This document shows, one piece after another, positions 12,243 through 52,459 of a stretch of DNA of 64,000 nucleotides. The notes below the pieces were generated by a model, which had not been told where the DNA came from, did not search any database, and saw only the letters and a program-made list of their open reading frames with translations. The DNA is from Taxillus chinensis (taxonomy: Eukaryota; Streptophyta; Magnoliopsida; Santalales; Loranthaceae): NCBI GenBank assembly GCA_023512835.1, contig JAKCVP010000379.1, positions 109,843-173,842 on the forward strand, read 5' to 3'. Position 1 is the first letter of the stretch, and every line of letters starts with the position of its first letter. Both the position numbers and the translations under genes were made by a program.

Positions 12243-13318
12243 ATGGCATTCAAGCTCGCACCGATGCTCTACCGCGCAGGTAGCAGCGCTCTGCGCTCGT
12301 CTGCCCGCGTCGTCGTCGTGCGCCAGCCCCAGCAGATCCAGAGGTCCTTTGCCGTGAGCTCGAGGGTGGCCAGCGATGCCCTCCAAGTTGTACGATACAA
12401 GCAAGTCCAGATACTGCAGGAGCGACAATGCTAACCGTCTTCCCAAGCACCGCGATTCCCCCGACAACAACCCCAACATCCCTTTCAAATTCAACGCAAC
12501 GAACGAGACTCTCATTGAAGAAATCATCGCCCGTTACCCATCACAGTACAAGAAGGCCGCCGTCATGCCTCTGCTAGATCTCGGTCAGCGTCAGCACGGC
12601 TGGACAAGCATTTCCGTCATGAATGAAGTCGCGCGGATCCTCGAGATGCCCCCGATGCGCGTCTACGAAGTCGCTACCTTTTACACCATGTACAACCGCA
12701 CCCCTGTCGGTCGCTACCACATTCAAGCTTGCACAACCGTACGTTCTCCAATCTTAATGCAATACCGCAGCTAGGCATCGGCATGAGCTTTGCAACTGAC
12801 GATTAAAATAGACACCCTGCCAACTTGGCGGCGTCGGCTCCGACGTGATCATGGAAGCGATAGAAAAGCACCTAGGCATAACCCCAGGCCACACAACAGC
12901 CGACGGCCTCTTCACCTTCACAGAAGTAGAATGCCTAGGCGCGTGTGTCAACGCGCCCATGGTGCAAATCAACGACGACTACTACGAGGACCTGACTCCC
13001 GAATCCACCACCGAGCTGCTCAAGGCGCTTCAAGCAGCTGCACAGCAAACGGGTGCGAGTGGTGGCGCAGCTGGCTTGGCCGGCGACGCAGGCAAGGACG
13101 TCAAGGCTGCCGAGGAGCGTGGGCAGCGCGAAGCACGAGATGCGCTGGAGGCTCAGGGACGAAAGTACGCTGCACAGGGCATTGCTATGCCCAGTCCTGG
13201 TCCGCTGAGCGGCCGCAAGACGTGCGAGCCCAGGGCTGGTCTGACGTGTTTGACCAGCGAGCCTTGGACTGCTGAGCAGGTATTTAGGAGCGACGGGGCT
13301 CTGGACAAGAGTGCATAG
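12243..13318 (+). CDS. NADH:ubiquinone oxidoreductase 24-kDa (NDUFV2/NuoE-type) subunit
   Basis: Mitochondrial complex I subunit of the NADH-oxidising arm, carrying a [2Fe-2S] cluster. Model: 12243..12389, 12448..12738 and 12812..13318, 314 aa. The N-terminus is Arg/Ser/Ala-rich without acidic residues up to about residue 40, as in a mitochondrial presequence. The core starts [19 protein letters not shown] and includes [17 protein letters not shown] and [14 protein letters not shown]. The cluster ligands are C-x4-C in CTTTPCQLGG, assembled across intron 2, and C-x3-C in [11 protein letters not shown]. The C-terminal extension is Ala/Gly-rich and longer than the bacterial NuoE end. Intron 1 has donor GTACGA and branch GCTAAC; intron 2 has GTACGT. 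Confidence 0.95.
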
Positions 13319-14554
13319 ACGGAGAAGGGGGAAAAGTGGGAGTGTATCATAGGCGCTAGCAGCGATGGCATCCGACATGTTTGAATTCACTTACCTATCT
13401 TGAGCGTTCTCCATCTTCAACTTTCATAACACAACTAGCAATGCCGCAGGTGAAGCCTCACTCTGCTCTGCTGTATACCACAATGGACTGCAGTCCATCA
13501 TGCGGCACATGATACGGAGCGTCCTTTGTGTGACAAGATCGCTAATGCAGGGGACCGCTTGACCACGTGTTTGACCACAGTCCACTTGCCCACTATGTTC
13601 TCAACAAAAGCGAGAAGGCGAGAGAAGCAAGACAGCAGGGCCCCGATCTTCGAGTCCCATGCAATCAGCCGCCATCCATTCTGGTTTCCTGTATATCTCT
13701 TCTGCTTTTACATAGTAACCAAGCTGTAGATATAGTCCTAGACCAACATACATTCCTCAATTTGAAATCGAGAGCATACGCCCTCCCTCCAATCTTGTCC
13801 CACATCGGTATTTAGATTTTCTTCCTCCCCCCTTCCCTTCCGACCCTTTATCCTCGCTTCCGACCTTTTCCCCTAGGTACCTTATCCTTTTTCCGGTCCT
13901 GGCAATAACCTCCAGCCAGGATCTCACATTCACTGCAGCATAGATAAGGAACGCGCCTGACTCAGAACAAAAGAGGTGCATACAGTAAATCAAAATCCAA
14001 AAGGCGAGACACATCATCCATGGATGTGCAGCACTCTGATCTTCTCCCATGCGCCGGTCTGCGCTTCTTTTCTTCGTTTTTTTTTATTTTCCTTCCTGTC
14101 TTCTTGCTTACGCCTTGCTTCCTTCCCTTTCTCTATTTTTTTTTTCCATTCTGCTCTCTGGATTGAAATTGGGATGGAGGATTGTGTTGTTCGACATCTT
14201 CCTAGTGCAAGTGTACGATTGCACAGTGCGCATATCTAGTAGGAAAGGATACGCAGGACTTGATCTTATTCGGCGTGCAAGTGATCATGTGCACGCGCAC
14301 ATGTGATAGCGCTGCCGTGCCCAGCGAAGAGGGTCCAGCTGAATTGTGCAAGCCGGCGCGTGCAGACTGTGCCCAGTTATGCAGCGAGCCACTTGTGACA
14401 AAGGGCCAGCCGTGTGCCAGAACACGTGCCTAGGGCAAGGGATAGCCGTTGCAGATGAAGGTGTATATACCAAAATATTTCATACCTATACCAATCAGAA
14501 GAAACATGTGATTCTTCGCACAAAATTGGTCACATGGCGCACTTGGTTAATCGT
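13319..14554. other. Gene-free region before the hairpin array
   Basis: It holds long pyrimidine tracts (about 13810-13890 and 14065-14155) and a CCTAGGTACC at 13872-13881. It has no supported coding exon and no tRNA-like arrangement that I can find. Confidence 0.5.
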
Positions 14555-15775
14555 CGAGCTTGAAACTCGGTCGAGGGGGATCTTGGTGCTGCTGTTGAGG
14601 ACTTGAAATCCTTCGCAGGGCACGCAACCTGGGGACTCGAAATCCCCTATGGGCTTGAAAGTCAAGGACTCCGAAATCCTTCACAGGCTCGAAACCTGCG
14701 GTAGGCTCAAAACCTGCGGTGGGCTCGAAACCCTCCACAGGCTCGAAACCTAGGGGACTTGAATCCTACTACGGGCTTGAACCCGCCTTGGGCTTGAGAC
14801 TCAAGGACTTAAAATCCTTCACAGGCTTAAAACCTGCGGTAGACTTAAAACCTACGGTGGGCTCGAAACCCTTCACAGGCTCGAAACCTGGGGACTTGAA
14901 ATCCTCTGTGGGCTTGAAACTCGCAGACTCGAAATTCGCCACAGGCTCAAAACCTGACGTGGGCTCTAAATTCACGGACTTAAAATCCAGCGTGGGCTTA
15001 AAACCCATCCCTTCACGGGCTCAAAACCTGACGTAGGTTCGAAACCTACTACTATAGTCCTTGAAAGACTTGAAATCCTACGGTGGGCTTAAAACCCACG
15101 GACTCGAAATCCGACGCAGGCTCGAAACCTGCTATGGGCTTGAAACCCACCTTCGCAGACTCAAAACCTGCTACGGGCTTGAAACCCACCTCCGCAGGCT
15201 TGAAACTTGCCGTGGGCTTGAAACCCAGGGACTTGAAATCCCACTGTGGGCTGAAATGTACAACGAGCTCGAAACTCGTTAGGGGCTTGAAACCCTCGAC
15301 ATAAACTGAAAATATCCACCCAGTGCTTGAAACACCATGGAACTTGAAATTCCTCCTTCGACGCTGTGGCAAACTTGAAATTCACCACGGGTTTCAAACC
15401 CGCCATGAGCCTGAAAACTCTACGAGACTCAAAATTTCGTCCTGGGGACTTTGAAATCCCTAGAGAACTTGAAATTCTCAACGGGCATGAAATTTGCTAG
15501 GGACTTGAAATTCTCTGTGGGCTTGAAACCTACCAAGGACTCGAAATCCTTGGGGTTTGAGATCCCGCGGATTTGTGCGGGTTTCAAACCTGCAGTGAGC
15601 TTCAAACTCACCCACACGCTTCAAACTCGTCATGAGTATGAAATACACAAAGACTTGAAATCTCCCAAGTGAACTCTGAAGCCTAGCAGAAATGTACAAA
15701 CTCACAGCAGGCTCTAAACCTGTACAGATTTCGGACATCTCTCAAGGCTTCAAACCCTTCAGGACTTGAAATCCT
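14555..15775. repeat. Tandem array of about 60 short hairpins with variable stems and a conserved 7-nt loop
   Basis: Each unit is a small inverted repeat around a loop of the form CTYGAAA, roughly every 16-24 nt. Stems differ from unit to unit but stay complementary within a unit. Examples: GGGGACTCGAAATCCCC (14631-14647), AAGGACTTAAAATCCTT (14803-14819), GTAGGTTCGAAACCTAC (15033-15049), GTGGGCTTAAAACCCAC (15083-15099), GCAGGCTCGAAACCTGC (15116-15132), AACGAGCTCGAAACTCGTT (15262-15280), GAGAACTTGAAATTCTC (15463-15479) and GTGAGCTTCAAACTCAC (15595-15611). Some stems use G-T pairs, as in TGTGGG/CTCGCA at 14907-14925. By hand I count about 60 units. The array is stop-poor in several frames on both strands, but the frames shift and overlap, so it does not look coding. 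I know no named family that matches. Confidence 0.9.
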
Positions 15776-16577
15776 TTCGATCCGCCCTCTTTTTTTTTGT
15801 GAGGCCAGAGGCCAGAGAAACTTACGGATTCAATTCGTAGCAGCTTCAGAAAGCACTTGCGGTTTTTTTTTCTGCTTCTTTTCTTTTCTTTTTCTCAGGC
15901 TTTTGCTCCGGTCAGACGGGAGAAGAAACAGAAATACGACGAGGCCAAGCGCTTTTCGTATCGATCGATGTACGGGTGTGATGTAAAGTGCGTGATGTGA
16001 AGTCCGATGTGCCTTATGTTCGTGTCAGGGATCATCCTAGGACTATGCCATCACAAAGGCGGGCCCTGGGTGTTTCGCGTACATTTGTTTTTGATAGGTA
16101 CAGTGCCTTTGCAGGAGTACTTGTGGTCTGGTCCTGGAGGATGCTGACATGAATAGTACTGTATACAGCATATCTGATCCCGGAGGGTCTGGTTTCGGTC
16201 AACAGTCAGTTCCAGCGGCAAAGAGCGTGATTGGAAGGATCACAGAGGGAAATGGTCTGTATGCGTTTGGACCAGGGCGCGCAAATGTACAGTACATACC
16301 TTGCAAGCGAGCGCAACGACTTACATTCTCGGTCAGGGCGCAGGAGCTCCTATTGGGTCGTTTGCGCTAGGTACACGAGAAGCTCGCGATGCTGTTGGTC
16401 CGATGCTTTCGTGCCCGCTTGCTCAGTCATCTACCCGTGCGCTAGTCAGTGTTGCAGACCGAGAAGATAAAACAAAGACAAGACGGTCAAGCTCATCCAC
16501 AGGGCCTAGATTCAAAGAGCCGCGCCCAATCTATCACAGGTATATAGGTAGGTAGGTAAGTATCCAATGATGCTCCT
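15776..16577. other. Gene-free region after the hairpin array
   Basis: It contains T-rich tracts (about 15790-15800 and 15862-15897) and TAGGTAGGTAGGTAAG at 16545-16560. It includes the 3' flank of GUT2. No gene can be supported. Confidence 0.5.
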
Positions 16578-18826
16578 CTAAGCATTAGCGGGTGAGTCGT
16601 AGTGCTCGACGGGGTTCTGTCCAGGTCGGAGCTTGGAGTCACTTTCCAGCAGATCGTCAGGTTTATCTACACTGGATGTCAGCAAGTGATCAAAGAAGAT
16701 TGAGAGGAGAAAGAGGCGAAGAAACGTACCATGCCTGGCGTACATGCCATATTCCTCATCGGCGTACTTTCCGACTTTACCTTGCTCAACCTCCTTCCTC
16801 GTCAACTTAAGCTTGTTCTTAGGCAGGCCCATGCTGCCGAGGAATTGTACGGCTTCACGCCATTCAAAGTCCTTCCTGGTCTGGTTCCACCCCAGCTCGG
16901 ATGCCATCAGGTCGATGATGTTGGGCAGAGCCTCAAGGGCTGCTTGTGCATTGAGAAAGGCGAGACGTGTACGGCGTGAGATGACGTCTGTTGCGTTTTG
17001 TGCATACTCGTGACGGCAAGCATAACGAACTTCACCGTCGACGAATGGGTATAGTTCCGAGATTTTCTTGCCCCGTACGGGAAATCGTTGGTCGGTTGGC
17101 TCGCAGAGTGCTGCAACAGTCCAGGCACGGTCGCCGTACGCGGTAGTCAAGTGCTTAGCTACTTCCGTGTCAATGCCGAAATGTTGGATGATATTGATAA
17201 AGAGCGTTTTGGAGAAGCCATGTGCGCCCACGAGCTTGACCTCGTGCGTCTTGCAAGTGCCATCGAGCGCGGTCTCAATGAAGTCGTTGCCCGAGACATG
17301 AACAGGTTTGGGAATATTGCGAGGCTTCAGTCCAAATTCCTTGATGGCTTCGTCGACAGTTTCCTCCGCCATCTGTCGGTAAGTTGTCCATTTGCCGCCA
17401 GAGATGGTAAGGAGACCGGAGTCGGAGGTCGTGATCAAGTGGTTGCGAACAAGGCCCTGCGTGTCCTTCGCCTTGGGGTCTCGCACAAGCGGACGAATTC
17501 CTGACCAGGCAGCAAGCACGTCACCGCGGCGGACGTTGATCTCAGGCGCGAGATAGCCCTTGATCTCGTTCAGGATCCAGCTAATCTCTTCCTCGCCTGC
17601 AACAGGGTTTTGAGCAATCTTAGTAGGCGCATCCGTCGTGCCGGCGATGGTGTTTCCGTGCCAGGGCAAGAAGAAAATGACTCGGCCATCAGAGGTGGAA
17701 GGGTCGATTAGACCCATGTTGGACGGAGCGAAGTAGCCAGGAAGGATAATGTGGACACCAGATGACGGGGCAACAATCTCAGGCACCTTCTGATCATCCA
17801 TCTTGCGGATGGAATCAGTGAAAGGACCAGTAGCATTGATGATGCCCTTTGCGCGGATTGTGATTTCTTGGGCAGTGCTGCCATCCATCTCAGGAACGCG
17901 GTCCTTGAGGACAGCTCCGTTTAAGCGACCGTTGGCATCCTTGGTGAGACTGGTGACTTCCATTTTGTTTACTACCGTGGCGCCATAAAGCGCGGCAGTC
18001 ATGGCAAGAGAGATGTTCATGCGCGAGTCGTTGTGTGCGCCATCGTAGTAGACCAAAGCACCAAACAAGTTGTCCTTTTTCAGCATTGGGAAAGCATCGA
18101 GGGCCTTGCTCCTAGTCAAGAAGTAGGAGCTCTCAATGTTTTCTGATCCAGCGAGCAAATCGTAGGCTTTGGTGCCGGCCCAGAAGTAAGGTACCTTCCA
18201 CCAGGTATCGACCGGGATCATGATGGGAAGCCAGGAAGACAGATGCGGAGCAGTGTCGAGAAAGTAGCGACGCTCGCGCAGAGCTTCCACAACGAGCTTG
18301 TACTGATTATAGTCCAGATTCCACACAGCCTTCTCGAGATAGCGCACACCGCCGTGGACGAGCTTGGTGCTCTTGCTACTGGTGCCACTGGCAAAATCAT
18401 CGCGCTCTACGACGGCTACGCGCAACCCTCTGGTAGCAGCGTCCAGGGCAACACCAGCACCAGTAGCGCCACCACCAATGATCAGCAAGTCGTATGGCTC
18501 GTCAGCCTCGGAAGCTGTGGAGTTTTGGGAATTGTTGCCGGCACTGCGTCGCAAGTCGGTAATCTGCTCGGCACGGGTCTTTACACGAGGGAAGAGCGGA
18601 GGGTTGAAGACGCCACCAGCGCCATAGGTGGGTGGAGGAACGGTGGCCTGATCGGTACCCTGCGACTCAGGATCAGAATTGGAGCTTCTGGAGCATCGGA
18701 CCAGAGCACGGAGCTTACAGGGATGTTTCTGGGTCGGTAGACCGTGTAGAGGACACCGGCTCCTGCAGCGGAGGCACCAGTCAAGTACAGTAGAGACTTG
18801 CCGATGCGTCTGCTGGCTGGGCCCAT
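16578..18826 (-). CDS. GUT2: Mitochondrial FAD-dependent glycerol-3-phosphate dehydrogenase
   Basis: Inner-membrane enzyme that oxidises glycerol-3-phosphate to dihydroxyacetone phosphate and passes electrons to ubiquinone. Model: complement of 18719..18826, 16730..18659 and 16578..16666, 708 aa. The ATG at 18826 opens MGPASRRIGKSLLYL, a short basic presequence with a membrane-like stretch ending YRPRNIP. Intron 1 (59 nt, donor GTAAGC, acceptor CAG) joins this to GTDQATVPPPTY. The FAD-binding motif is LLIIGGGATGAGVALDAATR. Other signatures are SSKSTKLVHGGVRYLEKAV, GPFTDSIRK and TISGGKWTTYRQMAEETVDE. Intron 2 (16667..16729, 63 nt) splits the Asp codon in ARHDKPDDLLESD. It is in frame and has no stop, so retention would insert 21 residues. 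Confidence 0.96.
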
Positions 18827-19362
18827 AGTAGGCAAAGAGGGTGCGCGGCTCGTCTGCCGGCGGAGAGACGGGCAGCGAGAATGTCAGAGAGTTGTTGATA
18901 GAGTAGAAGTGGAATAGGTGCAGCAGGCTTTCACATGCTCTGACGTCGTCGTTAGCGAGGAGCTTAAGCCAATGAGCGCCCAACCAAGCTGGGCCGCAGA
19001 TAATATGCCGGCGGGCGTACCTTAGGGATGCATATGCAATGCACGAAAGAGCGCGCAACCAGGTGTTAGCGATGGATGGCAAAAGAGCAGAGAGTGAACA
19101 GAGGAGGGTAGGTGGTGAGGCATGAATCATGGATGGCATGGAGAACTGGCCCACGGAGCATTGGCGGCTCGTACTGGCATTCGCCGCTCAGACCACGATT
19201 GATTTTGCTATTGCACCGAAGAAAGACCATCCATCGCCCTCCGCTTCGTCCGCATCGCTTTCTGATGTCCTCCCTGGCTAGCTGCATTGCCTCTCATCCC
19301 TTCGGCCGAGCTTTTTAGCCTTACCTAATCATGTCCCTCACAACCAAGGCATACCTCATCCC
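18827..19362. other. GUT2 upstream region
   Basis: It includes the GUT2 promoter and the 3' flank of the next minus-strand gene. The frame upstream of the GUT2 ATG is open for about 100 codons but shows no conserved feature. Confidence 0.45.
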
Positions 19363-21529
19363 CTACTTCTCCAGATTGCCGTCGCGCATCATCTTGAAGA
19401 AGTTGTAATTCCCGCTTCCACTTCTACTGGGAGCGCTCGCCGTTGGCGTTCGGTCCAAATCGGCGTATGCTCCAAAGAGATCTTTTCCTCGAGCAGCCTG
19501 GAATCGCGACGCCCTCGCCTTCTCATCCACTGCTTCACCTTCACCGTCCCCGTCCGAGTCTAAGCCGGCTTCCTGCTTTGCCTGCTGTTCACGCAAGATA
19601 CGCGTCTTCTCGACTCCGTACGGTCCCCGCTTCGACTCGTGGCTCGCCAGCTTGTCGTCGTAGTGCTTCATGATGCGTTTGATCGTGTACATCTCCATGC
19701 CTTCCTTTGCCAACATCTCGGGAATCTGCGTGTATGCCCGCTCGTTACCGCTCTCAATCTCGCACCCTGGCCCAATGTAGACGTAAGCCCACGCATCGAG
19801 CTGCATCTTCTTGATTCTGCGCGCTCGAGCTTGTCCTTGCTGTTTTTTGCCGAGGGGAAAGAAGAAGTCTTCATCGCGGCGCCCAAGATCGGTTGCACCC
19901 AAGGCTGAAAGTTCGTCGGGAAAGGCAGGGAATGGGGAGATGCTGGCGGTGTCACTACCATCTTCGCCTGAAGTGCTGGCTGCGCCAGACTTTTCCTTGT
20001 CTGTGATCGATACCTCTCGCGACCTGCGTCCTCCTGTTGACAACGAAGCACTCGACAAGGACCGAGCCCTTGAAGTTGAGCGCGCTCGCGCTCGTTTGAA
20101 CCAGTCGCCCTGTGCATCTGTGATTGCGGGTGTCCAATCAACATGTGCGTACCCACCTTTGGCCTTAAATTCGTTCCACCCGGGGCTGGGCTGGTATTTG
20201 AGGCCAAGTCTCGCGTCGAGTTCTCTCAGGCGCTTCAGCTCGTCTGCGTGCTCCGCTTCCTTGAGCCCAGCAGCATGAAGTTTCATGCGCCGCACGATTT
20301 GCTGCGTCACAGGCGTGTGCCTAACTTCATCATTCAAGTGTGCTTGCCTAGCCTCTGTGTAGGGTCTTTCATCCACCATCATACCATCATCCCACTGATA
20401 GTTCGACGAGGGGTCCGGCAAAGGGATTGGTTTCGGGGCGACCAAGGCAGCACTGGCAGGTGCAGTCTCCTCGCGCAGACGAAACTCGACTTCGATAGTG
20501 ACTATCTCCCTGCGAAACAGCTGGCCAGCATGGGAGTTCTTGTCGCAGCCCATGTGGCGATCGAGACAATCTAGCTCATTCTCATCGAGGCCAATCGCGA
20601 CCTGGCCGCGCATGTGCGTCTCTATGCGCAACTCTTCACTGTCTTTGGGAAGCAATTCTGTGACCTCGGCATCCTCCGGGACTTCCCAACACGTATAATT
20701 CGTGCCGTCGGCTCTCTTCCCCAATATCTTGCGGGTGACACGAGCGCACTCTCGCCTGCCAGGAAATATGTGCGAATCGCGCGTGTTCAGCGTCAAGGCG
20801 AGGCGCGAACGAGCATCGCCAGACCAGACAGCAGCAGGGAACGGAGCATCCTTAACCATGACCTGAGTATGATCGGGCAGCACGGCGGGAAATATTGCTC
20901 GAGCGAGCCCGTAGGTATCTTCGCGGCCAATGACCTGCGCGAGAATATCCGGTACACACAAGGTGTTGTACACAAAAACCGGAAGAGTCTTCTTCTTGTC
21001 TTTCTGTGGCTCGACAAGTCCCGTAAGTTGCTGCGAATCCAAGAGTCCCTCGTCGTTCTGCCGGTCTTGGGGGATCACTGGATTACCAGGTGCTTCAGGA
21101 TCATCTCCTTCTTTGGCAGAAGACTTGAAGAAAGTGAAAAGATTAGCTCTCATGCTATCAGAACGAGAGGGTAGGCGGCCAGGTACCCATTGCGTGTCTG
21201 CCAGCTCAGTGTGCAGCGCACGTATTTCAGCGACCTGGCTCTTGGGAAGCTGTCTTCTCAAATCATCGGCCGTGAGTATGTTTGTGCACGCCAGCTGATA
21301 GAGCTCACGTCGGGATAAGCGCTGAGAGACTTTTCCGGGCTTGGACCACGACCGACGAATGTTTGAAATCAGGCCATTCTCTTGGAGCAATCTCTCGGTT
21401 CTGGCCTCCAGGGCATCGATGTTACAACTAATGAGCAATCTGTTAGCACGCTAAAATCCAATTCTCAGTTCACATGACATTCAATAAAGGAACCTACTCT
21501 GCATCAGGAGCTTTGTCGAGACGATCCAT
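19363..21529 (-). CDS. Large protein with a gamma-glutamylcyclotransferase (AIG2-like) domain
   Basis: Model: complement of 21498..21529 and 19363..21427, 698 aa, starting MDRLDKAPDAD. The 70-nt intron has donor GTAGGT, branch GCTAAC and acceptor TTAG. Residues about 160-330 resemble the GGCT/AIG2 fold: LPVFVYNTLCVPDILAQVIG (compare the family's YGTL motif), then VMVKDAPFPAAVW, and THMRGQVAIGLDENELDCLD, with the acidic position expected in the catalytic loop, and FRREIVTIEVEF. An N-terminal helical part and a long C-terminal part flank it. The C-terminal part has a Ser/Arg-rich segment and a conserved-looking block from QLDAWAYVYIGPGCEIESGN to YTIKRIMKHYDDK. The family acts on gamma-glutamyl compounds, but activity of this large form is unknown. 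The domain call is moderate; the gene itself is firm. Confidence 0.75.
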
Positions 21530-51166: not shown

Positions 51167-52459
51167 TCAGCAAGGGCATTCCTGGTTCTATTTTTCACAT
51201 TCGGTTAGTTTCTCGCGTTTGCTAAAGGTTTGGGAGGGGGGCAAAAAGAAGCTTACCTTCTCGTCGTAGCACTTGCCGTTGGAGTGGCGTACAGGCTTCT
51301 TCTGGTGCTTAGCGGCCTCCTTCGCAGCCTTCTCGCGCTCCTTACGCTCCTTCTCCTCGCGAAGCTTCTTCTCGAGCTCGGCCTTCTTGGCAGCCTTCTC
51401 GCGCTCCTTGCGCTCCTTCCCTCGCGCAACGCCTTCTCCTTCGCGGCCTTCTCGAGCTCCTTGCGTTCCTTCTCCTCGCGAAGCTTCTTCTCGAGCTCAG
51501 CCTTCTTGGCGGCCTTCTCACGCTCCTTGCGCTCCTCTCCTCGCGCAGCGCCTTTTCCTTCGCGGCCTTCTCGCGCTCCTTGCGTTCCTTCTCCTCGCGT
51601 AGCTTCTTTTCCTTCTCAGCCTTCTCAGCAGCCTTCTTGGCCTCCTTCTCGGCCTTCTCGCGCTCCTTGCGTTCCTTCTCCTCGCGTAGCTTCTTCTCGA
51701 GCTCGGCCTTCTTGGCGGCCTTCTCGCCTCCATCTCCTGCTTCTTGCGCTCAAGCTCGGCCTTCTTGTCGGCCTTCTTGTCCTCATACGAGGGCGCAGGA
51801 GGATGGACGGGTTGCATCACGCCGCCACCAGGGTGGGAAGGAACAGGGTTGGTGTTACCGCCAGAATAAACGGGGGGCTTGGTGCCGCCGGTGACCGGGC
51901 TCTTGACGCCAGGAGTGCTCTCAGGACCGCTGGACTGGTGGTACACAGGAGGCTGAGGAACAGGGTTGGCATTGCCACCATGGTATGTGGGAGGCTGAGG
52001 AACAGGGTTTGCAGCGCCACCAGCGTAGGTGGGAGGTTGAGGAACGTATTGAGGAATAGTACGCTTGTAGTGGGGAGCCTCTGGCTCGTAGACAGGTGCA
52101 GTCTCGTGGACGGGTGCAGTCTCGTAGACAGGTGCAGTATCGTAGACAGGTGCAGTCTCGTAGACGGGAGCTTGGTAGACAGGAGCAGGGTACGCGGGAG
52201 CAACCTTACCACCAGCGCCGTAGCGGCCACCAGCAGAGCCATCAACGAAACCCTTCCAACCTGCGCCGCCACCAATGTGAGCCTTCCACCTCTCGTCGAA
52301 GATCCCATTCGAGCCCAGGAAACCGAATGTGGCCTCGGCCTCAGCCTCGGGCGCTGCATCGCGGGCTACGACGTCCGCAGAGGCTCCATCAGGGGATGGA
52401 ATGGCAGCGGTGTATGCCAAGCTGGCCATGGCCGCTGTGAAAACGATTGAATAACGCAT
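51167..52459 (-). pseudogene. Secreted repeat protein with three single-base gaps in its Lys/Glu-rich part
   Basis: ATG at 52459 opens MRYSIVFTAAMASLAYTAA, a signal peptide. Tyr/Pro repeats follow: four to five VYETAP-type units, then PQPPTYAGG..NPV units. Next comes a Lys/Glu-rich coiled coil (DKKADKKAELERKKQEMEA). At about 51727 one base seems missing. The KE-repeat frame then continues one frame off until similar one-base gaps at about 51535 and 51420. After all three, the frame equals that of the start again and ends RHSNGKCYDEK. An intron (51188..51256, donor GTAAGC, internal CTAAC) leads to a last exon, NQECPC and stop. Read as it stands, the frame turns Arg-rich and stops at 51518. The cause may be real mutation or base-calling error in repeats. 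TATAAG lies at 52565-52570. Confidence 0.7.
51290..51790 (-). repeat. Degenerate repeats coding Lys/Glu-rich coiled coil
   Basis: Units around AAGAAGCTTCGCGAGGAG and AAGGAGCGCGAGAAGGCC recur through this stretch on the minus strand, coding KKLREEKERKEREKA-type heptad-like sequence. All three minus-strand frames are long because the unit is stop-poor. Copy boundaries are irregular. The three one-base gaps lie inside near-identical units. Confidence 0.8.

What the first reader, a model, noticed from the sequence alone, without database searches (positions are those of the whole stretch)
14555..15775. Array of about 60 tandem hairpins with covarying stems and one conserved loop
Seen directly: for 1.2 kb, units of about 16-24 nt each form a small palindrome around a 7-nt loop, mostly CTYGAAA. 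Stems change from unit to unit (GGGGA/TCCCC, AAGGA/TCCTT, GTAGG/CCTAC, AACGAG/CTCGTT, GAGAA/TTCTC, GTGAG/CTCAC) yet the two arms match within the unit, sometimes through G-T pairs. Ordinary minisatellites share one sequence, whereas here pairing is shared and sequence is not. That is the signature of selected hairpin structure, or of repeated template-switch correction of quasi-palindromes. I know no named fungal element like this. Possible roles: a structured noncoding RNA, a protein-binding array, or a replication or recombination feature.
Basis: partly seen in the sequence, partly recalled or inferred. Interest (0 to 1): 0.92.

Follow-up and report, generated by a model that had tools for sequence, protein, structure and literature searches.

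The report
Anticodon-arm-like tandem hairpin array
Between two ordinary genes of what is likely a fungal genome lie about 60 tandem mini-hairpins whose two arms differ from unit to unit yet mostly match each other, around a seven-letter loop shaped like a tRNA anticodon loop; the folded shape was likely kept by selection, and the array is predicted, without any test yet, to make an RNA that would act as a many-site decoy for tRNA-binding enzymes.

Summary
Sixty-two units at 14554-15776 mostly form 4-5 bp stems around a 7-nt loop. With units chosen on the loop alone, arms pair at 160 of 210 positions against 94 +- 7 when arms are dealt to other units. The four inner partner columns are among the top five column pairs in mutual information; 120 neutral duplication-mutation simulations stay far below the excess. 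Loop core letters change six to seven times less than arms in duplicated segments. I propose an RNA array of anticodon-arm mimics (confidence 0.27). Against it: G-T and A-C mismatches do not differ clearly (26 vs 17; 17 vs 18 in the strictest unit set), so RNA-level selection is at most moderate; recently duplicated units show no excess of compensating changes; no transcript or second species could be examined. DNA-level maintenance is nearly as likely. The window's own genome could not be searched (tool unreachable).

The parts
14554..15776 (+). tandem array of 62 small hairpins (4-5 bp stem, 7-nt loop mostly CTYGAAA), modal period 18 nt
   Evidence: no comparable hairpin cluster elsewhere in the window
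15083..15297 (+). well-preserved part of the array, including the 39-nt higher-order repeat 15115-15227
   Evidence: ten-unit bins 14928-15103 and 15121-15305 average 0.6 and 0.5 non-Watson-Crick of 4 inner pairs, other full bins 1.0-1.5; tandem repeat score 170; four of the five best model scores
15116..15132 (+). example unit GCAGG-CTCGAAA-CCTGC
14803..14819 (+). example unit AAGGA-CTTAAAA-TCCTT, 15 of 17 letters equal to the anticodon arm of a bacterial tRNA-Leu(UAA) found in a fetched locus
   Evidence: letters compared by eye
15262..15280 (+). example unit with a six-pair stem, AACGAG-CTCGAAA-CTCGTT
15387..15403 (+). unit with loop TTTCAAA (anticodon-like UCA), also at 15577-15593; near-palindromic, so the model matches it on both strands
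14081..14140 (+). pyrimidine-rich tract (88%) upstream of the array, of a kind found in fungal promoters (recalled); others at 13781-13900; possible + strand promoter, not tested
15790..15798 (+). T9 run shortly after the last unit; similar runs occur elsewhere in the interval, so no weight is put on it
12376..13318 (+). flanking gene, 24-kDa complex I subunit type (2Fe-2S thioredoxin-like), in two ORF pieces
   Evidence: PF01257
16578..19154 (-). flanking convergent gene, FAD-dependent glycerol-3-phosphate dehydrogenase type
   Evidence: PF01266 and PF16901 in 16578-18500

Best explanation
The stretch is a tandem array of 62 small hairpins with covarying arms and a conserved 7-nt loop of tRNA-anticodon-loop form (C32-U33-N34-N35-A36-A37-A38 on the + strand), and it is predicted to be transcribed from that strand into an RNA that would act as a many-site decoy or landing platform for proteins that bind tRNA anticodon arms, most likely the A37 isopentenyltransferase. 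Shown: the pairing, the covariation, the constant loop core, the shared orientation of the exact-loop units. Inferred: that selection on the folded strand, not a mutational process, keeps the arms matched, since arms differ between units at 0.57 of sites while pairing and loop core persist. Inferred: that the + strand RNA is the relevant molecule, because that strand reads A-A-A at loop positions 5-7 with C-U at 1-2 and free choice at the two anticodon positions 34 and 35. Untested: transcription, binding, modification and effect.
For: Arm pairing and covariation far beyond arm shuffles, slid pairs and neutral simulations. Pair 4 occurs as CG 17, TA 12, AT 8, GC 6 of 62. Among similar unit pairs with up to three differences, 30 of 116 pairs of arm differences fall on partner positions against 12.9 expected. 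Loop letters of 62 units: position 1 C/T 61, position 2 T 56, position 3 C/T 62, position 4 any letter, positions 5, 6, 7 A 60 each. In 29 homologous unit pairs defined by spacing and arms alone, loop positions 1, 2, 5, 6, 7 changed at 5 of 145 sites, arms at 70 of 290, positions 3 and 4 (34 and 35 in tRNA numbering) at 32 of 58: constant and free letters fall where those of an anticodon loop do. Isopentenyltransferases select tRNAs mainly by A36-A37-A38, Tit1 modifies synthetic anticodon stem-loops, weak stem pairs lower MiaA activity, and i6A37 is needed for m3C32 on UCN-reading tRNASer (PMC7200024, passages seen). Probe sequences printed there, reverse-complemented by me by hand, give arms AAAGA-TTAGAAA-TCTTT (Ser), CAAGA-CTGTAAA-TCTTG (Tyr) and loop TTTCAAA (mitochondrial Trp), the last identical to two units. 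A bacterial tRNA-Leu(UAA) found by ARAGORN in a fetched locus has arm GGGGA-CTTAAAA-TCCTT (the one of 13 tRNAs found whose anticodon was on my list of five). That CUUGAAA and CUCGAAA are the loops of tRNASer(UGA) and (CGA) is recalled.
Against: Mismatches in pairs 1-4 of 62 units are G-T 26, A-C 17 (p 0.22); over five pairs of the loop-chosen sets 17 vs 18 and 27 vs 26; a true G-T share of 0.8 or more is rejected (p 0.0026), so strong RNA-level selection is unlikely. In 26 homologous unit pairs two-sided changes (5) equal the number expected if arms change independently (4.2), and 32 changes break a pair: no sign of recent compensation. In the strictest homologous set (9 pairs) loop core against arms is 2 of 45 vs 14 of 90, p 0.09. 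The minus strand folds better than the plus strand (z -7.3 vs -4.8 as RNA over 14540-15480; -7.7 vs -6.9 in local folds of the array), and its loop TTTNRAG also meets the looser anticodon rule (pyrimidine 32, U33, purine 37). Units were admitted by loop similarity, which builds in some loop constancy. A loop of type Y-T-N-N-N-A-A has about a 1 in 128 chance per strand (hand estimate), not negligible for a reading found after the fact. No Rfam family at gathering score and no tRNA, no transcript data, no second genome.
Confidence: 0.27

Rival explanations
1. The array is a minisatellite whose palindromes are kept matched at DNA level by hairpin-primed template switching (one arm copied from the other), while the 7-bp core is kept for another reason, for example as a protein site.
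For: G-T and A-C mismatches do not differ clearly, as expected if the double strand and not an RNA is what is kept. Template switching between short inverted repeats homogenises arms in wild-type yeast, in one case starting from 4-bp arms and a 7-bp spacer (PMC8604942, passages).
Against: Alone it does not explain a loop core that changes at 0.034 per site beside arms at 0.24. In that paper 8 of 42 genes with 7-bp arms and 11 of 16 with 8-bp arms were significant, and spacer inversions were seen only with arms over 9 bp; here arms are 4-5 bp and no exact CTYRAAA loop with a stem lies on the opposite strand of the array. Homologous duplicates show no excess of two-sided changes (5 vs 4.2 expected).
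Confidence: 0.25
2. The array works as DNA: hairpins or small cruciforms extruded on one strand are bound through their constant loop by a protein, for instance in replication, recombination or chromatin organisation.
For: DNA folds of both strands are well below arm-permuted controls (z -6.0 and -8.0); no clear mismatch strand bias; constant loop with variable stem.
Against: Stems of 4-5 bp are marginal for extrusion from duplex DNA (general knowledge); no partner protein or analogous eukaryotic element is known to me.
Confidence: 0.17
3. A relic: a once-selected hairpin array (RNA or DNA) that is now drifting, amplified by slippage and without present function.
For: 32 of 37 changed inner pairs in homologous units break pairing on one side and two-sided changes are not enriched; 16 of 62 units have two or more broken inner pairs.
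Against: The loop core is still constant in duplicated units (5 of 145 sites).
Confidence: 0.15
4. A double-strand array of binding sites for a dimeric transcription factor or for TFIIIC, the symmetry being that of the sites.
For: The consensus RRRCTYGAAAYYY is near-symmetric, and GGTTCGAAACC at 15036 is a perfect B-box match.
Against: Factor sites keep half-site letters; here letters change and pairing stays. One unit matches the strict B-box, the looser form adds one minus-strand site inside the array (14774), and the position of the B-box C56 (recalled) is T in 40 of 62 units.
Confidence: 0.04

Closest known systems
tRNA anticodon arm of UNN-reading tRNAs (tRNASer UGA/CGA, tRNALeu UAA/CAA), substrate type of MiaA/Mod5/TRIT1/Tit1 isopentenyltransferase
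   Same: 7-nt loop with pyrimidine 32, U33, free 34-35, A36-A37-A38; short stem of variable sequence
   Different: stand-alone, about 60 in tandem, no acceptor, D or T arm; stem 4 (weakly 5) bp; no tRNA found by ARAGORN or Rfam
Minisatellite / variable-number tandem repeat
   Same: head-to-tail short units, higher-order duplications of 39 and 138 nt
   Different: units share pairing and loop, not arm sequence; simulated neutral evolution does not give this
Quasi-palindromes corrected by template switching (yeast, E. coli)
   Same: short imperfect inverted repeats whose arms tend to match
   Different: arms shorter than those scored in the yeast screen, constant loop, one orientation, tandem
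Integron attC arrays and bacterial REP/BIME elements (recalled)
   Same: repeated elements in which single-strand fold matters more than sequence
   Different: those are bacterial, longer, with partner recombinase or TnpA-REP; loop and spacing differ
CRISPR arrays (recalled)
   Same: regularly spaced short palindromic units
   Different: no constant repeat, no long spacers, a likely fungal locus

Membership tests
Functional structured RNA | base pairing conserved by compensating changes | tested here: met
   over the whole array; not visible in the 26 recent homologous unit pairs
Functional structured RNA | G-U tolerated clearly more than A-C on the transcribed strand | tested here: inconclusive
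   26 vs 17, p 0.22; 17 vs 18 and 27 vs 26 in loop-chosen sets; share of 0.8 or more rejected
Functional structured RNA | transcribed | not testable with these tools
   no RNA data held
Anticodon stem-loop recognised by A37 isopentenyltransferase | A36-A37-A38 in a 7-nt loop | tested here: met
   A at each of these loop positions in 60 of 62 units, units being chosen partly on the loop; rule from PMC7200024
Anticodon stem-loop recognised by A37 isopentenyltransferase | 5-bp stem | tested here: inconclusive
   pairs 1-4 clear, pair 5 borderline, pair 6 absent
Anticodon stem-loop recognised by A37 isopentenyltransferase | bound or modified by the enzyme | not testable with these tools
   needs an assay
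tRNA gene or tRNA-derived repeat | D arm, T arm, acceptor stem or Rfam/ARAGORN match | tested here: not met
   four sub-threshold tRNA-Sec matches, best E 0.89
Minisatellite | tandem units sharing one consensus | tested here: not met
   loop shared, arms not: mean arm difference 0.57 per site over all unit pairs, loop core 0.12; TRF reports pieces only
Template-switch-maintained inverted repeats | arm homogenisation visible in recent copies | tested here: inconclusive
   5 two-sided changes vs 4.2 expected in 26 homologous unit pairs; small sample
Template-switch-maintained inverted repeats | spacer inversions | tested here: not met
   no exact CTYRAAA loop with stem of 3 or more on the minus strand of the array; but inversions were reported only with arms over 9 bp
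Protein-coding repeat | open frame through the array | tested here: not met
   13-25 stops per frame, longest open stretch 125 of about 417 codons
TFIIIC B-box array | GGTTCGANNCC in the units | tested here: not met
   1 match in the array
CRISPR array | near-identical repeats with unique spacers | tested here: not met
   62 distinct 17-mers among 62 units, spacer usually 1 nt; cas genes not searched

The most novel reading that the evidence does not exclude
The first array of anticodon-arm mimics: a fungal long RNA carrying some sixty stand-alone, A36-A37-A38 anticodon stem-loops that titrates or concentrates the tRNA isopentenyltransferase and tRNASer m3C32 machinery, or shields tRNASer/tRNALeu from an anticodon nuclease by offering it decoys.
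Probability: 0.17. Interest if true: 0.92.

Novelty: categorically new. Interest (0 to 1): 0.72.

Why it matters
Covariation between the copies of one array inside one genome is unusual evidence that a folded structure is kept. If RNA-based, this would be a non-tRNA RNA that copies the anticodon arm dozens of times and would open a new way of regulating tRNA modification or of resisting tRNA-cutting toxins. If DNA-based, it would be a natural record of palindrome maintenance at arm lengths below those scored in the yeast screen. Either reading can be tested directly with stranded RNA-seq and relatives' genomes.

Tried and rejected
Coding repeat: the 18-nt period and several 15- and 21-nt gaps suggested hexapeptides, but all six frames carry stops and gaps other than 18 show no frame preference (12, 11, 8 for remainder 0, 1, 2). 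TFIIIC B-boxes and T arms: rejected on loop position 3 and pair 1. Known RNA families: none at gathering score; the 12 matches at E up to 5 in 14400-15900, four of them tRNA-Sec, are far below gathering scores. A D-arm-like TGGTTAA just before the first unit: no tRNA match there, dropped. Transposon ends: longest shared stretch between flanks 10 nt direct, none of 9 or more inverted. RIP: the array's indices (TA/AT 0.86, substrate 1.09) are shifted in the RIP direction against the rest of the window (0.62, 1.33) but do not reach the usual cut-offs (recalled: above 1.1, below 0.9) and reflect the loop motif. The bacterial-type promoter and terminator scan was not informative. Papers: the rows listed by 10 searches (several lists show only part of the hits, e.g. 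20 of 39 and 12 of 45) show nothing like this in fungal nuclear DNA; beyond listings I saw passages of PMC7200024 and PMC8604942 only.

Full report
WHERE IT IS. The array fills 14554-15776 in a 3.2-kb interval between two convergent genes: a 24-kDa complex I subunit type gene on + (ORF pieces 12376-12774 and 12845-13318, both PF01257) and a FAD glycerol-3-phosphate dehydrogenase type gene on - (16578-19154, PF01266 and PF16901). Further left lies a uroporphyrinogen decarboxylase (PF01208) whose best named relative is Neodothiora populina (71% identity; best unnamed 83%), so the genome is taken to be that of a fungus near the Dothideomycetes, on one protein.

WHAT IS THERE. Parsing on loop similarity and arm pairing gave 62 units. 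The spacing is 18 nt in 30 of 61 gaps and 15 nt in 7; seven gaps of 26-43 nt hold no accepted unit. Because that parse used arm pairing, the main test was done on units picked by loop letters alone: 42 with a perfect CTYRAAA loop and 55 with up to one mismatch. W-C pairs in five positions: 160 of 210 and 197 of 275, against 93.9 +- 6.8 and 120.3 +- 7.6 when whole 3' arms are dealt among units (5000 shuffles, maxima 121 and 150); with the arm of a neighbour one to three units away pairing is 0.40-0.50 per position against 0.76 and 0.72 within the unit. Pairs 1 to 4 carry the signal, pair 5 barely, pair 6 not at all. On the 62 units, mutual information over all column pairs from -7 to +13 is highest at partner pairs 4 (0.79 bits), 1 (0.44) and 3 (0.37), with pair 2 (0.32) fifth after a non-partner pair at 0.36. 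The column counter agrees: 80.6% standard pairs vs 62.0 +- 1.7 shuffled and 18.4-54.3% slid, covariation score 0.653 vs 0.323 +- 0.026. Folding limited to 22-nt spans is 6 to 8 standard deviations below 40 arm-permuted copies on either strand, as RNA or DNA, and forms 30-36 of 62 stems.

COULD RELATEDNESS FAKE IT? A palindromic unit that is duplicated and mutated neutrally to the observed arm diversity gives equal pairing within and between units: in 120 simulations (two duplication rates, 60 each) the excess averaged below 0.01 with a maximum of 0.121; the observed excess over four pairs in 55 units is 0.323. So something keeps, or kept, the arms matched.

LOOP. Of 62 units, loop positions 1-7 read C/T 61, T 56, C/T 62, any (G 43, A 11, C 5, T 3), A 60, A 60, A 60. 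In homologous units of duplicated segments, paired by spacing and arm similarity only (29 pairs), arms changed at 70 of 290 sites, loop positions 1, 2, 5, 6, 7 at 5 of 145, positions 3 and 4 at 32 of 58 (Fisher p 5e-9 for arms against core); a whole-unit definition (26 pairs) gives 63 of 260, 5 of 130 and 22 of 52; the strictest set (9 pairs) gives 14 of 90 against 2 of 45, p 0.09. Caveat: units enter the list by loop similarity, so units with a lost loop, perhaps in the seven long gaps, are not counted. Exact-loop hairpins all point one way: none with a stem of 3 or more lies on the minus strand of the array; with one loop mismatch and a stem of 4, one does (15392, the near-palindromic TTTCAAA unit).

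WHAT THE LOOP LOOKS LIKE. A 7-nt loop on a 4-5 bp stem with pyrimidine-U-N-N-A-A-A is the anticodon loop form of tRNAs that read codons beginning with U. CUUGAAA and CUCGAAA are, from memory, the loops of tRNASer(UGA) and tRNASer(CGA), and CUUAAAA, CUCAAAA those of tRNALeu(UAA) and (CAA). From calls: a bacterial tRNALeu(UAA) in a fetched locus has arm GGGGA-CTTAAAA-TCCTT (array unit 14803-14819 is AAGGA-CTTAAAA-TCCTT), and yeast probes printed in PMC7200024, reverse-complemented by hand, give TTAGAAA, CTGTAAA and TTTCAAA loops, the last identical to two units. That paper states that isopentenyltransferases select principally by A36-A37-A38, that Tit1 modifies synthetic anticodon stem-loops, that weak stem pairs lower MiaA activity on one tRNASer, and that i6A37 is a condition for m3C32 on UCN-reading tRNASer; [quoted passage not shown] The constant letters of the array are 32, 33, 36, 37, 38 and the free ones 34 and 35. 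Part of the 34-35 freedom may be CpG decay (CG to TG, CA, TA), but 8 of 62 units have C or T at 35, which that does not give. The minus-strand loop TTTNRAG meets a looser anticodon rule too, so the form alone does not fix the strand.

STRAND AND LEVEL. If RNA were selected, G-T should outnumber A-C mismatches on the transcribed strand. Counts over pairs 1-4 of 62 units are 26 and 17 (p 0.22); the 95% interval for the G-T share is 0.44-0.75, and a share of 0.8 is rejected (p 0.0026). Over five pairs of the loop-chosen sets the counts are 17 vs 18 (42 units) and 27 vs 26 (55 units). This leaves room for moderate + strand RNA selection and for none. In 26 homologous unit pairs, 37 of 104 inner pairs differ: 32 on one side only, each breaking a W-C pair (17 to G-T, 10 to A-C, 5 other), and 5 on both sides, against 4.2 if independent. 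A looser comparison of similar units, homologous or not, does show partner coincidences above uniform expectation (4 of 11 vs 1.2, 30 of 116 vs 12.9, 116 of 482 vs 53.6 for up to 2, 3, 4 differences), but those pairs are not independent. So the matching of arms is the outcome of a slow process; neither strong selection nor frequent template-switch copying is visible in the youngest duplicates. The minus strand folds somewhat better, probably because its loop letters can add a T-G and a T-A pair (over 14540-15480).

ELSEWHERE. By the tests none holds a comparable diversified array: besides the window (21 of 43 loops with full 4-bp stems) the best are the repetitive L181 (2 of 14), L159 (1 of 11), L188 and L129. 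Rfam gives nothing at gathering score. The window's own genome could not be searched in 18 unanswered tries, and no eukaryote collection was available, so occurrence in relatives is unknown.

JUDGEMENT. Shown: a real array with conserved pairing, unconserved arms, constant loop core, one orientation, anticodon-loop form. Inferred: selection on a folded strand. Predicted and untested: transcription, an anticodon-arm-binding partner, decoy or platform function. I rate the RNA anticodon-arm-mimic reading 0.27, DNA-level palindrome maintenance plus a constrained core 0.25, DNA hairpin site 0.17, relic 0.15, duplex factor sites 0.04, remainder unknown.

Noticed in passing
L181:4305-4525: Shimazuella soli intergenic array of about 13 near-identical units GGACTCAAAATCC at 17-18 nt, same loop family and same stem as one class of the window array, followed by an inverted repeat and T run that look like a terminator. 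Homogeneous, so possibly a chance palindrome, but anticodon-arm-like too.
   Followed up: partly
L188 near 5253 and L129 near 3970: Short homogeneous prokaryote repeats GAGCTCGAAACTC and TCCCTTGAAAGGA, four hairpins each within 200 nt.
   Followed up: no
window 14544-14550: TGGTTAA, a D-loop-like heptamer (2 on +, 3 on - in 64 kb), ends 8 nt before the first loop; no tRNA match there.
   Followed up: partly
window 15392 and 15582: Loop TTTCAAA makes these units almost perfect palindromes, matching the unit model on both strands.
   Followed up: no
window 51317-51781 and 51948-52202: Several tandem repeats with periods 119, 87, 53, 42, 21, 18, 15 and 12 nt, many of them multiples of three, perhaps repeats in a coding sequence.
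   Followed up: no
window 19363-21438 (-): 691-aa open frame without a Pfam match.
   Followed up: no
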